A DNA stretch of 64,000 nt from NCBI RefSeq assembly GCF_009002475.1, contig NZ_AP019860.1:3100001-3164000 (forward strand), read 5' to 3'. Both the position numbers and the translations under genes were made by a program. Under the pieces are notes generated by a model. It was given only the letters and a program-made list of their open reading frames with translations, had not been told where the DNA came from and ran no database searches. Shown here piece by piece: positions 13,866 through 24,828 of this stretch. The stretch comes from Candidatus Uabimicrobium amorphum (lineage in GTDB: Bacteria; Planctomycetota; Uabimicrobiia; Uabimicrobiales; Uabimicrobiaceae). How positions within the stretch are numbered: position 1 is the stretch's first letter; each line of letters begins with the position of its first letter.

Positions 13866-14095
13866 TGTTCTCTGGAACTACAAAACAAAATGGTTTTGCA
13901 ATTTTGACCGTAAGTAATAACTGTACAACACTTTATACGATCAAATTGTGCAATTCCAACAGCAAGTTGAAGTAGTTTCATTTTAATAAAACAACAGCGA
14001 GCTGTTGGGCACGGTCATCCCTGACTTGATCAGGGATCCAGACGTTTCAAACTTAAATTTTGTGTTGTGGATTCCTGCTTTCGCAGGAATGACAC
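13866..14095. repeat. Composite palindromic dispersed repeat, copy B
   Basis: Opens with a 21-base sequence (13866-13886) identical to 5439-5459, then about 90 unrelated bases. From about 13980 it matches 5567 onward (TTTTAATAAAACAACAGC), then two hairpins: ATCCCTGA/TCAGGGAT within 14014-14039 and ATTCCTGC/GCAGGAAT at 14071-14090, closing in GACAC. Copy A and A2 together hold the same modules in another order. It occupies nearly all of the 376-base space between the VWA gene and the sigma-like gene. Confidence 0.8.
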
Positions 14096-14158: not shown

Positions 14159-15601
14159 TTATCGTCCCACATACTGTCCATTTGTCAAATCAGACAGCGT
14201 ATGTAAGTATTTGTATATGTCTGAATACGCTGTTTTTTCTTTGTTTCCGTCTTCCGTAGGGGGGTAACCAATCGCAATAGTAATAATACGCGTCTTACTA
14301 CCTTTTTCCTGCTTTTTACGGATATAGTCTAAGATTTCTTTTTGTAAATCTGCAGAAGATTTTTTCGGGGCGTATGGCAAACCATCGGTTAAGAGGAAAA
14401 TAGCGTCCAGATTACCATAATCTTCGTAGGCAATTTTTAAAGCTTCGTGCACGTATGTGGAGCCACCAAAACGCAACTTTTTCTTTAACCAAAACATAGC
14501 CCTGTTTTTATTTAAATCATCCCCCGCAGCCATTAGACCTTTTTTCGAAGGATAAAACCTCATGGTAGAAGAAAAAGCGATCACCGAAAATTCTTCCACA
14601 TCGCAATGCTGTAAAACCTCGCCACATGTATCGATAATAACTTTTTTCCAATGATTGGCAATAATACTTCCCGATTTATCTAAAAGAAATACGATGCGTT
14701 TGTATTTGAGCTTTATACCAAAAAGAGATTTGTCGCCTTTTTTTTGCAAGGTCTTTTCTAAAGTCTCTATCGCATCTTCTTTTTCTTTTATTTCCTGTTC
14801 GCGTTTTTGTATTTGCTCCTCAATGCTCTTTAATTGCTTTTCCTTACTAGTAAGACGATCTATCAACGACTTGTTTTGCTGCTCAATTTTTTCGGAAACA
14901 GCATTGATTTCGTCTAATTGTTTTTGGGCAACTAGTTTCTGATCATTGATATCTTCCACTTTTTGCTGCAACTCCTTGTTTTTCGAAGCAACTTCTGTGG
15001 CATTTTCGCGCAATTCATCACGAGCTTTTTGCGAAACATCGTATAGTGCTTGTAGTTTTGTATACTGTGCCATCAGCTTTTGCAGCTCTTTATTGGTGAT
15101 TTCTTTTTGCTGGGTAATCGCCTCCAAAGCGTTATTTTTTTCCTCCAACAATTTATTTTTTCTCTGCAAATCCTGATTGACTATTTGACTGCGCATTTGC
15201 GCTTTCTTTAGTTTTTCCATCGCGACTTGCGCTTGATTTTTTGACGCCTCGGCTTGCTGGAGAGCTTGCTCCGCAGCATGGGCTTTTTCTAAGGCCTTAC
15301 GTCGCGATTGTTCTGCAAGAAACTTACTATGCAACGCTTCTTTCTCTGCATATTCCGCGATATTACGTGCTTCGTTGGCCATGTCGCGCGCTTTTTGTGC
15401 ATCTTCGCGGGATTTTCGCGCAAGGTTGCGTTCCGTTTTTGCTTCGGCAGCTTTCTGACGATACTTTTCAACAGTGGTGTTTACTGTGCTGTTTAGGTGT
15501 TGGCTATTGATCACAAAAATAAGAATCATCGCCCCTAATGCACAGCAAAATACATCAATAAAGGAAATACTAAAAACACTTATTTCGCGTTGTTTTTTCA
15601 T
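14159..15601 (-). CDS. Membrane-anchored coiled-coil VWA-domain protein (TolR/MotB-like position)
   Basis: 480 residues. One N-terminal membrane helix (about 13-33, SFIDVFCCALGAMILIFV, a sequence style typical of planctomycete partners of MotA/TolQ proteins), a very long coiled coil (about 45-290) and a C-terminal VWA domain (300-480). The VWA has an intact metal site: D308-x-S310-x-S312 in FLLDKSGS, a threonine region, and LLTDG. VWA domains bind protein ligands through the metal. The ATG overlaps the stop of the MotA/TolQ gene by 4 bases, so the two products probably assemble as a stator-like complex, with this protein reaching across the envelope. The function of the whole complex is unknown. 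Confidence 0.83.
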   Translation of the reverse strand: MKKQREISVFSISFIDVFCCALGAMILIFVINSQHLNSTVNTTVEKYRQKAAEAKTERNLARKSREDAQKARDMANEARNIAEYAEKEALHSKFLAEQSRRKALEKAHAAEQALQQAEASKNQAQVAMEKLKKAQMRSQIVNQDLQRKNKLLEEKNNALEAITQQKEITNKELQKLMAQYTKLQALYDVSQKARDELRENATEVASKNKELQQKVEDINDQKLVAQKQLDEINAVSEKIEQQNKSLIDRLTSKEKQLKSIEEQIQKREQEIKEKEDAIETLEKTLQKKGDKSLFGIKLKYKRIVFLLDKSGSIIANHWKKVIIDTCGEVLQHCDVEEFSVIAFSSTMRFYPSKKGLMAAGDDLNKNRAMFWLKKKLRFGGSTYVHEALKIAYEDYGNLDAIFLLTDGLPYAPKKSSADLQKEILDYIRKKQEKGSKTRIITIAIGYPPTEDGNKEKTAYSDIYKYLHTLSDLTNGQYVGR

Positions 15602-16386
15602 TTCTTTTCACCTAGACTCAAGTTGATAATAAATTTTTCTTGGCAAAATAAATCAACAGAGTTGAGTAAATCTTCCTCTTTGCGTTGTGTACTATATAAA
15701 AAGTACATTAGAACCATACTTTCCACCAAAGCAATCAGCGTGGTGTCAAATGCTGTCCCCAAGGGCTTTGTTACTAAAGTAATGTCTTGTGCGATAAAGT
15801 CGACATTTGACAATGCGGCGCCAATTCCCATAACAGTTCCAATAAAACCCAAAGAAGGGATCGCCCAAGCGATGTAACGCAATATGTTATAGGAAGACTC
15901 TATATGTTTCTCTAGAGTATCAAGTCGTTTGGTAAAAATACCAAGGACTTTTTTGGAAGTTTCCGTTACCAGACAGTGATCTACTAAAAACAATAACGTC
16001 TGCACAACCATGGAATTGCGTACTTTTTGTACCTGAGTTCCCCCATGAAGAATCCGATTGCGTAGATTGTCCACTTCACTTCTCTGGCTAATAATACGGC
16101 AGCTATCCAGATTTTTTTCTAAGGTGGTTAAGGCATTTCTTTCGGAGTTGATCAATATATTTTTATTGATAATGCTAATGAGTCCCCAAAAGAATAGAAT
16201 GTACAAAGACGCATAGATAAACATCGCAAATGCATAGTCATCAATTGGTCCCAGCATTCTTCCTAGAGAGACATCTAAAAATTTGTCGGAAAAGAAAAGT
16301 ATGGCGTAAAAAAGTACACCACTTGCAAGTCCCATAAAAAAACAAGCTGATGTGTTGGGGACTAAAAAAGTTTTTTTCGTACTCAC
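15598..16386 (-). CDS. MotA/TolQ/ExbB family proton-channel protein
   Basis: 262 residues with four membrane segments (about 12-34, 48-74, 168-190, 200-230). The last two form the family core: YIAWAIPSLGFIGTVMGIGAALSN, then LVTKPLGTAFDTTLIALVESMVLMYF, matching the G.IGTV.G...A and L..AF.TTL.G motifs of TolQ/ExbB. A cytoplasmic loop of about 90 residues lies between helices 2 and 3. Family members form pentamers that use ion flow to move a dimer of a one-helix partner. The partner here is almost certainly the overlapping VWA protein (ATGA overlap). The FHA-protease gene upstream also overlaps by 4 bases. Confidence 0.87.
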   Translation of the reverse strand: MSTKKTFLVPNTSACFFMGLASGVLFYAILFFSDKFLDVSLGRMLGPIDDYAFAMFIYASLYILFFWGLISIINKNILINSERNALTTLEKNLDSCRIISQRSEVDNLRNRILHGGTQVQKVRNSMVVQTLLFLVDHCLVTETSKKVLGIFTKRLDTLEKHIESSYNILRYIAWAIPSLGFIGTVMGIGAALSNVDFIAQDITLVTKPLGTAFDTTLIALVESMVLMYFLYSTQRKEEDLLNSVDLFCQEKFIINLSLGEKK

Positions 16387-18413
16387 CGCATTAATTCCTC
16401 AAGTATTTTGCTATGGATTCCGTAAACGAGGTTCTTTTTTCCATCAGAAAAAGAGACAACCCCCACAATCTTTCCTTTTTTGTTGATAATAGGTCCTCCA
16501 GACGACCCGTTGGTTTGATTGACATCTAATTCAACAAAATCAGGAGCTTTGGATTCACTAGAAACCTTGCCTTCACAAACAACAGGTTTTGCTACCCCAT
16601 TTTTATTGAGTAGCCTTCCCCCACCTAAAGAATAACCCAAAACAATCACTTCTTCACCGACGTTGATTTGTGTTTCTTCAATGATGCGCCATTCACTATA
16701 CTCTTGTTTTTTCTCTTTGTCGGATAGCGAAATCTTCAAAATTGCAAGATCTCCATTGCTGTTTTTTTTGTGAACGAGAAAGTCATCAACCTCTTCGTAT
16801 TCATCCTCGGCCATACGATGAATTTTTACAGAACCAATTCCTGTATTGTTACCGAAAGTGTTGAAACTATTTTGCAAAAGATATGTAGATTTTTTAGGAT
16901 CTAGCACTTGACTATTGTACGGCCAAAGAGCGATATGCTGTTCGGCAATCTCAACACCCTTCTCATCAAAAATTTTGCCATCTTTTTTGCGATGTTTTTC
17001 AAACTTCCACGATTCGATGACATGCTTGCAAGTGACAACATAGTAGATGTTTTTTTCTTGAGCATCTTTTTGTGCAATGAGAAAACCCGTACCCGAAGCC
17101 ATCGACTGTTTGCTATTTTTGTCAAATGTTGCGATATAATAGATATTTTTTTGATACAGCTGCATTGTATTCGGAGGATTGATCATTCGCTGCAAATTCG
17201 AGGAATATTTTTTGAAAACAAACACGGTACCTAAAATTACCAAAGCAATAATTACCGTGGTAATGAGTCCCGTCATGAGAGCTTTCATTCCCAATGATTT
17301 TTTTAGCGCCGGTAGCGAACGGTGGTTGTTGCGTATTTCCCAATAATCACCTATGCGTAGAATTTGATTTACCCCAAAACGACTACCATTACGTGGGTCG
17401 GCGTCTATTGTCTTTTCATCTATAACAACGGGTATGTCTAAACCACCTATTTTGCGAATGGAAAAATAATCCCCCTCAAGAGGCACTTCTATTTCCGCAA
17501 GGAGAAAAGGAGCATGCTCATCGTTAATGTGGAATGTCGCTTCATCGTTTTTGCCTATCGTATATACGTTACCTCTTTCTGGAGAGGGGATAAAGTCGGA
17601 CATTAAACACTTCTGAGGTATTCGTGGCATATGGAATTTGTTCACATCGTGTAGGAGGGTAAATGTACTTCCCACCTGCAAACACTTTTGATAACTTAAA
17701 ATACGATTCTCATTTTTGTGAACTTCGCTACCATCGATACTTACAACAACACTGCAATTATCGTCTTTATTCAAAACGACATGGTTGCCTTCCGCAGGTA
17801 CGGTTATTCGCGCGATCATTCCCGATATGGAAGGATCTGAAATAGAAATATCGTGTTTAGAATCTCCCCCAAGAGTATACTCTTTGTCGCGCTCTAGAGA
17901 ATCTACAATATCAGACAAGCGCTTGTGCACTTTGTGAACTTCTTCATGCCCTTCAATATAAAAACGGATCTTAGGAGCGTTTACCGCAACCCCTAACTTA
18001 ATGACACTTCCAGATTGTAGTTTACTGTCATTACCAACTTTTTTTCCGTCGATAAAAAGAGGGTTGTCTTTTGCAAGGCAACGAATAACATAACTCTCAT
18101 CTTCAATAGAATAAGCAATAGATGCTTGTTCCTCCGCAACATATTTGTCTTTATAAGTAATACGATAATCGCATTGTATACTTCGACCTATCAAGAAGTA
18201 AGGTTTTGTTGTGATGATTTCACAAGTCTTTGGTGCAGCGTTGGGAGAATCTAAACTAAGTAGATTAAATTCAGCAATAACAACCCCTTGTAGTTCCATA
18301 GATGATTGCAGTCCAGCTTCTATTTCGCTTGAGTTTTCTTGTTCTTGCTCTTGCTCTTGCTCCTCATCTTGCTCTTTTTGATCAAAAATGACATCCTCTT
18401 GCGGCTCGTCCAT
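16383..18413 (-). CDS. Triple-FHA, membrane-spanning trypsin-like protease
   Basis: 676 residues. An acidic Gln/Glu start (EQEQEQEQE), then three FHA-like phosphopeptide-binding domains: about 70-150 (FLIGRSIQCDYRI, the best), 178-255 (YTLGGDSKHDISISDPSIS) and 283-360. A membrane helix follows (379-400), then a C-terminal chymotrypsin/Deg-type protease with His464 (VTCKHVI), Asp555 (NGDLAILKI) and Ser638 (NGSSGGPI), a complete triad. FHA domains read phospho-Thr in the cytoplasm, so the protease is outside. It lies between a kinase gene (32-base gap) and the MotA/TolQ gene (4-base overlap). Inference: kinase phosphorylation is sensed by FHA and relayed to an outside protease and/or the channel. 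Confidence 0.86.
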   Translation of the reverse strand: MDEPQEDVIFDQKEQDEEQEQEQEQENSSEIEAGLQSSMELQGVVIAEFNLLSLDSPNAAPKTCEIITTKPYFLIGRSIQCDYRITYKDKYVAEEQASIAYSIEDESYVIRCLAKDNPLFIDGKKVGNDSKLQSGSVIKLGVAVNAPKIRFYIEGHEEVHKVHKRLSDIVDSLERDKEYTLGGDSKHDISISDPSISGMIARITVPAEGNHVVLNKDDNCSVVVSIDGSEVHKNENRILSYQKCLQVGSTFTLLHDVNKFHMPRIPQKCLMSDFIPSPERGNVYTIGKNDEATFHINDEHAPFLLAEIEVPLEGDYFSIRKIGGLDIPVVIDEKTIDADPRNGSRFGVNQILRIGDYWEIRNNHRSLPALKKSLGMKALMTGLITTVIIALVILGTVFVFKKYSSNLQRMINPPNTMQLYQKNIYYIATFDKNSKQSMASGTGFLIAQKDAQEKNIYYVVTCKHVIESWKFEKHRKKDGKIFDEKGVEIAEQHIALWPYNSQVLDPKKSTYLLQNSFNTFGNNTGIGSVKIHRMAEDEYEEVDDFLVHKKNSNGDLAILKISLSDKEKKQEYSEWRIIEETQINVGEEVIVLGYSLGGGRLLNKNGVAKPVVCEGKVSSESKAPDFVELDVNQTNGSSGGPIINKKGKIVGVVSFSDGKKNLVYGIHSKILEELMR

Positions 18414-18445
18414 CTAAATCTTCTCCTCTTAACTATGAAATTTGC

Positions 18446-19291
18446 CTATTGACTTTCTTCGTTTACCGAGATTTGATAATTTTCATCTGCAAACTTTCCC
18501 AATTCGTACAAAACTTCTCTCATGGTTTTATAGCGTTTTTCTCTATTTTTTTCCAGCATACGCATAATAACTGTTTCTAGTTTATGAGAAACATTTTTGT
18601 TGAATTGACGTATCTTAGGCACCTGGCCTTTGAGTTGCTTTTGCAAAATAGCCTTCTCACTTTTCCCTTGAACATGAGGCGTACCAGCGAAAGCTTCGTA
18701 AAAAGTGGCTCCTAGAGCGTAAATATCACACTGTCCATCAAGATTGTCTTTACGTACCTGCTCAGGTGCCATGTATAACGGTGTACCTTCACGCTTTTTG
18801 GGACGTAATTTTGAAAGAAAACTTATTTTTTCGGCGATGGAAAAATCAATTAATCGCGACTCGCCTTCGTTGTTCACCAAAATATTCTCAGGCTTTATGT
18901 CTTTATGAATTATATTTTGTTCATGTACATAATTCAGGGCCTTCGCCATTTGGATAAAAACCTTCATTCCCTTTTGGAATATAAGCGGGTTTTTATTGAG
19001 TATCCATGTTTTTAGAGTTTCACTTTCAAAATATTCCAGAGCGATTGCAGGACGCTTCGACTCCTTTATGACGGAGTCTACCTTGATAATGTTTGGATGA
19101 TCAAGAGATGCCATGAGTTTGGCTTCATTTTGAAATAGCCTGCGAATACGTGAATTGTTACAACCACTTTGGTTAAGTACTTTAATCGCAACATGTTTTT
19201 TGTCTTTTATGCGAAGAGCATAATAAACTTCGGCAAATCCCCCACTTTTAATGGGGTTTTCGATTTTATATCCTGTGACAATGTAAGACAT
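18446..19291 (-). CDS. Cytoplasmic Ser/Thr protein kinase, variant catalytic motifs
   Basis: 281 residues, almost only a kinase domain, with no membrane helix. Glycine loop IKSGGFAEVYYA (14-25), VAIK with Lys37, HKD (129-131) in place of HRD with IKPEN intact, DFS (149-151) in place of DFG, then GTPLYMAPEQ. The catalytic Asp131 and metal Asp149 are kept, so activity is likely. The loss of Arg in HRD suggests that activation-loop phosphorylation matters less. First gene of the operon with the FHA-protease, MotA/TolQ and VWA genes; the FHA domains are the natural readers of its product. Confidence 0.9.
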   Translation of the reverse strand: MSYIVTGYKIENPIKSGGFAEVYYALRIKDKKHVAIKVLNQSGCNNSRIRRLFQNEAKLMASLDHPNIIKVDSVIKESKRPAIALEYFESETLKTWILNKNPLIFQKGMKVFIQMAKALNYVHEQNIIHKDIKPENILVNNEGESRLIDFSIAEKISFLSKLRPKKREGTPLYMAPEQVRKDNLDGQCDIYALGATFYEAFAGTPHVQGKSEKAILQKQLKGQVPKIRQFNKNVSHKLETVIMRMLEKNREKRYKTMREVLYELGKFADENYQISVNEESQ

Positions 19292-24651: not shown

Positions 24652-24828
24652 GTCATCCCTGTAAAAGTGCATACGTGTTAAGTTAAGATGTAAAACTCTT
24701 ATGGTGTCATCCCTGCAAAAGCAGGGATCCAGCGTCTTATAAGACAACTTTATATTGCTGGTTTCCCGCTTACGCGGGAATGACACGGCTTTGTAAATTT
24801 TTACGAAGAAAGCTTTTACGGGATGACA
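24652..24828. repeat. Nested palindromic dispersed repeat, copy C
   Basis: Outer arms GTCATCCCTGTAAAAG (24652-24667) and CTTTTACGGGATGAC (24813-24827) enclose a full inner unit at 24704-24786: GTGTCATCCCTGC/GCAGGGAT then TTCCCGC/GCGGGAATGACAC. The inner unit is the same family as copies A and B. The arrangement suggests one repeat inserted inside another. It lies between convergent genes, so it may also act as a terminator. Confidence 0.75.

What the first reader, a model, noticed from the sequence alone, without database searches (positions are those of the whole stretch)
14159..19291. Four-gene envelope signalling machine: kinase + triple FHA/protease + MotA/TolQ channel + coiled-coil VWA
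Seen: four minus-strand genes, three joined by 4-base overlaps. They are a kinase, a membrane protein with three FHA domains inside and a complete trypsin triad outside, a MotA/TolQ/ExbB channel, and a one-helix protein with a 250-residue coiled coil and an intact VWA metal site. Known: FHA binds phospho-Thr; MotA/TolQ proteins use ion flow to move a one-helix partner; ZorAB and ExbBD are examples. Inferred: phosphorylation is read by FHA and coupled to an ion-driven VWA arm and an outside protease. I know no described system with this set; it could act in envelope maintenance, predation/engulfment or defence.
Basis: partly seen in the sequence, partly recalled or inferred. Interest (0 to 1): 0.82.

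Follow-up and report, generated by a model that had tools for sequence, protein, structure and literature searches.

The report
Ion-driven envelope arm with FHA-protease
Four neighbouring genes in a planctomycete encode what looks like an ion-powered rotary motor carrying a long arm tipped with an adhesion-type (VWA) domain across the cell envelope, together with a membrane-anchored protease and a kinase; the motor type was predicted in 2025, but I found no description of this particular assembly.

Summary
Four minus-strand genes encode a Ser/Thr kinase, an FHA-FHA-FHA-TM-trypsin protein, a 4-TM MotA/TolQ-type channel and a one-helix, long coiled-coil VWA protein. The last three are joined by 4-base overlaps. 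All four have orthologues across the order: kinase, channel and VWA in 6/6 genomes, FHA-protease in 5/6. The full cluster is kept only in the sister genome; the kinase is unlinked in the other four.

The channel/VWA pair meets the sequence tests of the recently predicted "TPH-vWA" class (PMC12204202): a TolQ-like pentamer whose axle is itself a VWA protein. The axle Asp (D16) is invariant, and two channel Thr align with TolQ T145/T178. No exbD/tolR gene lies nearby.

What differs is a single VWA gene instead of the usual pair, a roughly 250-residue coil with invariant Ala in one heptad register, and the FHA-protease plus kinase. The "FHA reads phosphorylation" step is weakened: FHA1 lacks the conserved Ser and His in 5/5 orthologues, and FHA2/3 are degenerate.

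The pattern of inheritance argues against defence. Most likely it is an ion-driven periplasmic force transducer with an anchored protease. Its target is unknown, and all function here is inferred from sequence.

The parts
18446..19291 (-). Soluble Hanks-type Ser/Thr kinase, 281 aa; K37, catalytic D131 in 'HKDIKPEN' (non-RD), DFG replaced by DFS (D149 kept)
   Evidence: Pfam Pkinase E 1e-52; best solved relatives StkP/PknB; orthologues in 5/5 other genomes of the order, HKD shared by the five aligned (G005 not aligned)
16383..18413 (-). FHA-FHA-FHA-TM-trypsin membrane protein, 676 aa
   Evidence: Pfam, TM, orthologues in 4/5 other genomes
17991..18194 (-). FHA1 (residues 74-141): Arg77 and Asn117 kept; Ser/His of the pThr site are Ala93/Gln96
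17637..17930 (-). FHA2 (residues 162-259), FHA fold, pThr Arg absent
   Evidence: fold match Z 12 to MDC1 FHA; weak Pfam; residues
17331..17615 (-). FHA3 (residues 267-361), degenerate FHA
   Evidence: profile similarity to FHA2 prob 99.3; modelled beta pattern with pLDDT 76-89
17214..17270 (-). single transmembrane helix between FHA and protease (residues 382-400)
   Evidence: hydropathy
16458..17093 (-). trypsin-like protease domain (residues 441-652), triad H464, D555, S638
   Evidence: Trypsin_2 E 5e-17; triad positions; conserved in G001, G003, G004; domain absent in G002
15598..16386 (-). MotA/TolQ/ExbB-type channel, 262 aa, four predicted TM helices
   Evidence: MotA_ExbB E 6e-12, TM, orthologues at 50-60% identity in 5/5 order genomes
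15835..15837 (-). channel Thr184 in TM3, aligns with TolQ T145
15739..15744 (-). channel Thr215-Thr216 in TM4; Thr216 aligns with TolQ T178
14159..15601 (-). one-helix coiled-coil VWA protein, 480 aa (the putative motor axle)
15554..15556 (-). Asp16 in the transpore helix (motif F-S-x-S-F-I/L-D), aligned with the ExbD/MotB Asp
14732..15493 (-). coiled-coil arm, residues 37-290
   Evidence: predicted helices 11-130 and 145-286; heptad periodicity
15314..15421 (-). proximal coil segment with invariant Ala at 61, 68, 75, 82, 89, 96, one heptad register
14162..14707 (-). VWA domain (residues 299-480) with intact MIDAS D308 S310 S312 T382 D406

Best explanation
The channel forms a pentamer and two copies of the VWA protein pass through it by their N-terminal helix, as ExbD, TolR or MotB do. 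Ion flow past Asp16 and the ring of channel threonines turns or cycles this dimer. A coiled coil of about 250 residues (about 38 nm if one continuous helix; my arithmetic) carries the movement through the periplasm to a metal-binding VWA head, which grips a partner at the cell wall, the outer membrane or the protease. The FHA-TM-trypsin protein sits beside the motor, with the FHA array as a cytoplasmic scaffold and the protease in the periplasm, where force-exposed or motor-delivered substrates could be cut. The kinase sets the level or state of the machine. Shown from sequence: domains, topology motifs, conserved catalytic, ion-path and MIDAS residues, order-wide co-occurrence. Inferred: pentamer:dimer assembly, rotation, the protease-motor contact, the kinase link, and the target.
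For: Channel and VWA genes are adjacent in 6/6 genomes of the order. D16 is invariant and lines up with own-genome ExbD and MotB Asp. T184/T216 map to TolQ T145/T178. Ion-path, MIDAS and triad residues are conserved although overall identity is only 44-60%. No ExbD/TolR gene is near this channel, whereas the genome's five ExbD genes sit beside four of its other MotA/ExbB genes. VWA fold Z 14. Profile homology to planctomycete loci with a TolQ-like gene plus two one-helix VWA proteins: channel prob 99.9, VWA prob 99.2 and 98.6. The FHA protein sits next to the channel in four of the five genomes that have it, with 4-base overlaps here. Kinase, FHA, FHA-TM-trypsin, channel and one-helix partner genes recur together in a different family, G314. 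In G003 a kinase-TM-HtrA fusion lies in the channel cluster, which supports a protease on the outer side.
Against: No complex prediction or experiment. The FHA-protease is unlinked in G003, not found in G005 (59% complete) and lacks its protease in G002, so the protease is dispensable. The kinase is linked only in the two f1 genomes. The FHA-protease model has low overall confidence. The relatives are incomplete assemblies.
Confidence: 0.6

Rival explanations
1. Only the channel and VWA protein form a machine (a TPH-vWA motor). The FHA-protease and kinase are neighbours with separate jobs, brought together in one lineage.
For: Kinase unlinked in four of six genomes; FHA-protease unlinked in G003 and not found in G005; kinases and FHA domains very abundant.
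Against: FHA protein adjacent to the channel in four of five genomes that have it, with start-stop overlaps here; similar association in G314; an FHA domain also ends the gene between the channel and the paired VWA genes in G274.
Confidence: 0.22
2. The machine powers surface movement or prey engulfment: the VWA head is an adhesin-like foot driven by the motor, as the VWA adhesin CglB works with the AglRQS motor in Myxococcus gliding (general knowledge).
For: VWA domain with intact MIDAS on a motor axle. PMC12204202 suggests gliding for the other vWA family.
Against: Present in all six genomes of the order, including small ones of 3.1-3.7 Mb whose lifestyle is unknown; no outer-membrane anchor recognised on the head; organism identity not verified.
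Confidence: 0.1
3. An anti-phage defence system analogous to Zorya, with kinase and protease as sensor and effector.
For: Channel hits ZorA2 at E 9e-7; protease hits RT-Protease_XI and kinase hits PD-T4-6 models.
Against: These hits are to the generic domains. Single copy, present in 6/6, synteny with Rrf2 and radical-SAM genes in G000 and G001; no ZorC/D/E or OmpA-type ZorB recognised; metabolic neighbours.
Confidence: 0.05

Closest known systems
TPH-vWA motors (PMC12204202, Mol Biol Evol 2025)
   Same: TolQ-like channel next to a one-helix vWA protein with the Asp-bearing transpore helix and no tolR/exbD; VWA fold; conserved channel threonines
   Different: Single VWA gene rather than the usual heterologous pair; long coil between helix and head; FHA-TM-trypsin and kinase genes attached. 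The term 'FHA domain' does not occur in that paper
ExbB-ExbD / TolQ-TolR
   Same: Aligned ion-path Asp and Thr residues; periplasmic output
   Different: Four TM helices in the channel instead of three (three in ExbB/TolQ is general knowledge); VWA head and coil instead of the ExbD/TolR periplasmic domain; no TonB/TolA-type third protein recognised in the cluster
MotA-MotB
   Same: Four-TM channel with a large loop between TM2 and TM3
   Different: VWA instead of the OmpA-like peptidoglycan-binding domain; not with flagellar genes; the genome has a separate MotA next to two MotB-like genes (L050)
ZorA-ZorB (Zorya)
   Same: MotA-like channel plus one-helix partner
   Different: No long ZorA tail on the channel, no OmpA domain, no ZorC/D/E recognised; inheritance is not defence-like
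MarP/HtrA-type membrane-anchored trypsin proteases
   Same: TM followed by a trypsin-fold domain; profile hits to MarP and Do families
   Different: Three FHA domains before a single TM helix; no PDZ match in the Pfam scan

Membership tests
TPH-vWA motor class (PMC12204202) | vWA gene adjacent to a tolQ-like gene | tested here: met
   6/6 genomes of the order
TPH-vWA motor class (PMC12204202) | no tolR/exbD gene nearby | tested here: met
   The genome's ExbD genes lie at other channels; none among the ORFs around the window locus
TPH-vWA motor class (PMC12204202) | transpore helix with the proton-binding Asp | tested here: met
   Asp at the same place in all six, aligned with ExbD/MotB Asp
TPH-vWA motor class (PMC12204202) | ring of channel threonines | tested here: met
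   T184 and T216 invariant, aligned to TolQ T145/T178; the ring itself not modelled
TPH-vWA motor class (PMC12204202) | vWA fold | tested here: met
   Z 14 against VWA structures
TPH-vWA motor class (PMC12204202) | genes predominantly in heterologous pairs (described as common, not as required) | tested here: not met
   One VWA gene per locus in all six; paired loci are a related type
TPH-vWA motor class (PMC12204202) | 5:2 assembly with the helix inside the pentamer | not testable with these tools
   only single chains could be modelled
TPH-vWA motor class (PMC12204202) | sequence homology to the Idiomarina family used in the paper | not tested
   its sequence was not at hand; planctomycete paired loci used as stand-ins
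Phosphothreonine-binding FHA protein | Arg, Ser, His, Asn of the pThr site | tested here: not met
   FHA1 keeps Arg (4/5) and Asn (5/5), loses Ser and His (5/5); FHA2/3 lack Arg in the window protein. Relaxed binding is not excluded
Active trypsin-like protease | His-Asp-Ser triad | tested here: met
   H464 D555 S638, conserved in all four protease-bearing orthologues; activity not tested
Zorya defence system | ZorB with OmpA-like domain and ZorC/D or ZorE genes | tested here: not met
   partner carries VWA; no such genes recognised among the neighbours

The most novel reading that the evidence does not exclude
A kinase- and FHA-regulated, ion-driven rotary arm with a VWA gripping head that mechanically feeds or opens envelope substrates to a membrane-anchored trypsin protease: a force-coupled proteolysis machine for envelope remodelling (possibly surface movement or engulfment) in a planctomycete order.
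Probability: 0.15. Interest if true: 0.85.

Novelty: new variant of a known kind. Interest (0 to 1): 0.55.

Why it matters
TPH-vWA motors were described in 2025 from sequence and AlphaFold prediction only, and I found no later paper on them in the library. A single-copy version with an associated protease and kinase, conserved across a planctomycete order, gives that class a first candidate regulation and output. It also makes testable whether ion-driven 5:2 motors act on envelope proteolysis. If the window organism is close to the engulfing Ca. Uabimicrobium, this is a concrete candidate for force across its envelope.

Tried and rejected
Viral-contig scan with the channel: no relatives. Genome-contig scan and 392-genome phylum search: close relatives only in this order; scores drop from about 460 to 120 bits. 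Defence reading rejected on inheritance and synteny. Kinase linkage first looked like strong evidence; the kinase count and the orthologue search showed it is weak. Canonical pThr reading by FHA rejected on residues. FHA-protease structure model too poor for the protease (pLDDT 56). Search for more G314-type channels in its family and FHA-proteases in the phylum found none as close. Several planctomycete channel loci were other motor types: channel plus two one-helix partners lacking the S-F-L-D motif, or giant fusions. Two paper searches failed on term syntax.

Full report
OBSERVATION. Four minus-strand ORFs exist at the stated places. The stop of the FHA-protease overlaps the GTG start of the channel (16383-16386) and the stop of the channel overlaps the ATG of the VWA gene (15598-15601); the kinase is 32 bp upstream of the FHA gene. 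Pfam gives Pkinase, FHA plus Trypsin_2, and MotA_ExbB; the VWA match is weak. An AlphaFold model of the VWA protein shows two long helices (11-130, 145-286) and a C-terminal VWA fold matching solved VWA and I-domain structures at Z about 14. FHA2 matches FHA structures at Z 12 and FHA3 is homologous to FHA2 by profile (prob 99.3), so the triple FHA claim holds. The trypsin triad is H464/D555/S638 and the MIDAS is D308/S310/S312/T382/D406.

RELATIVES. Five other genomes of the same order carry the channel (50-60% identity) with the VWA gene directly downstream, though the VWA gene is cut by a contig end in one. In the sister genome G001 all four genes have the same order, beside the same Rrf2 and radical-SAM genes. 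In G004 the FHA-protease, channel and VWA genes are together; in G002 the FHA protein has no protease domain; in G003 the FHA-protease is on another contig, beside a gene that also flanks it in G004 (by its sequence a tyrosyl-tRNA synthetase; not searched), while the channel lies after a kinase-TM-HtrA fusion and a kinase-TM protein; in G005 (59% complete) only channel and VWA are seen. A clear orthologue of the kinase occurs in all five (scores 375-574 against 187 for the next kinase), unlinked in the four more distant genomes; the five that I aligned share the unusual HKD catalytic loop (G005 not aligned). Kinase adjacency is weak evidence in genomes with at least 118-133 kinases each.

MOTOR. 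The channel has four predicted TM helices. HMM alignment to solved TolQ places T184 on TolQ T145 and T216 on TolQ T178 (the match itself is weak, E 0.05, but the family is clear from Pfam). The VWA helix reads F-S-x-S-F-[IL]-D, and D16 lines up with the Asp of the genome's own ExbD and MotB proteins. The genome has five ExbD genes, beside four of its other MotA/ExbB genes, but none here. This matches the TPH-vWA class predicted in PMC12204202. Planctomycete loci with a channel and two such VWA proteins are homologous by profile. What is specific here is one VWA gene, and a coil with six invariant Ala, all in one heptad register, plus 3.5-residue periodicity in its distal part in four of five sequences. 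One continuous helix of that length would be about 38 nm (arithmetic, not measured).

ACCESSORY PARTS. In G314, from a different family, a channel and a one-helix partner lie with kinases, FHA proteins, an FHA-TM-trypsin protein and an Hsp70-like FHA protein. In G274 the gene between the channel and the VWA pair also ends in an FHA domain (E 3e-11). FHA domains near such motors therefore recur. But in the window family the FHA pThr site is not canonical: FHA1 has Ala93 and Gln96 where Ser and His belong in 5/5 orthologues, and FHA2 and FHA3 lack the Arg in the window protein. They may be scaffolds like the YscD-type FHA, which Pfam also scores.

INTERPRETATION. Best reading: an ion-driven force transducer with a protease on the outer side. 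Confidence is about 0.75 for the motor part and lower for its functional link to protease and kinase; 0.6 overall. Defence is disfavoured. The target is unknown.

Noticed in passing
L049:8361-10553 (G000:C1, about 9.404-9.407 Mb): The same genome has ExbB-ExbD next to a 309-aa VWA protein whose TM helix 'ISTAAHVLFLI' resembles the S-H motif of TolA/TonB: a candidate of the other vWA transducer family of PMC12204202 (Pfam VWA_3 E 6e-19).
   Followed up: partly
L041:6143-7879 (G003): Kinase-TM-HtrA trypsin fusion in the channel cluster of a related genome, next to a ParA/MinD-like protein and a kinase-TM protein.
   Followed up: partly
window:5525-5550, 14068-14093, 24706-24731: Dispersed repeat GTCATTCCTGCGAAAGCAGGAATCCA (two exact copies, one with 3 mismatches) in the window; 0 expected by chance.
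   Followed up: no
window:13534-13851: ORF with only region 4 of an ECF-type sigma factor (105 aa); looks like a fragment.
   Followed up: no
L112:4831-10702 (G072): A 1194-aa channel protein with two one-helix partners bearing an S-F-L-D-L-L-S-C-A-L-G motif, another motor type in planctomycetes.
   Followed up: no
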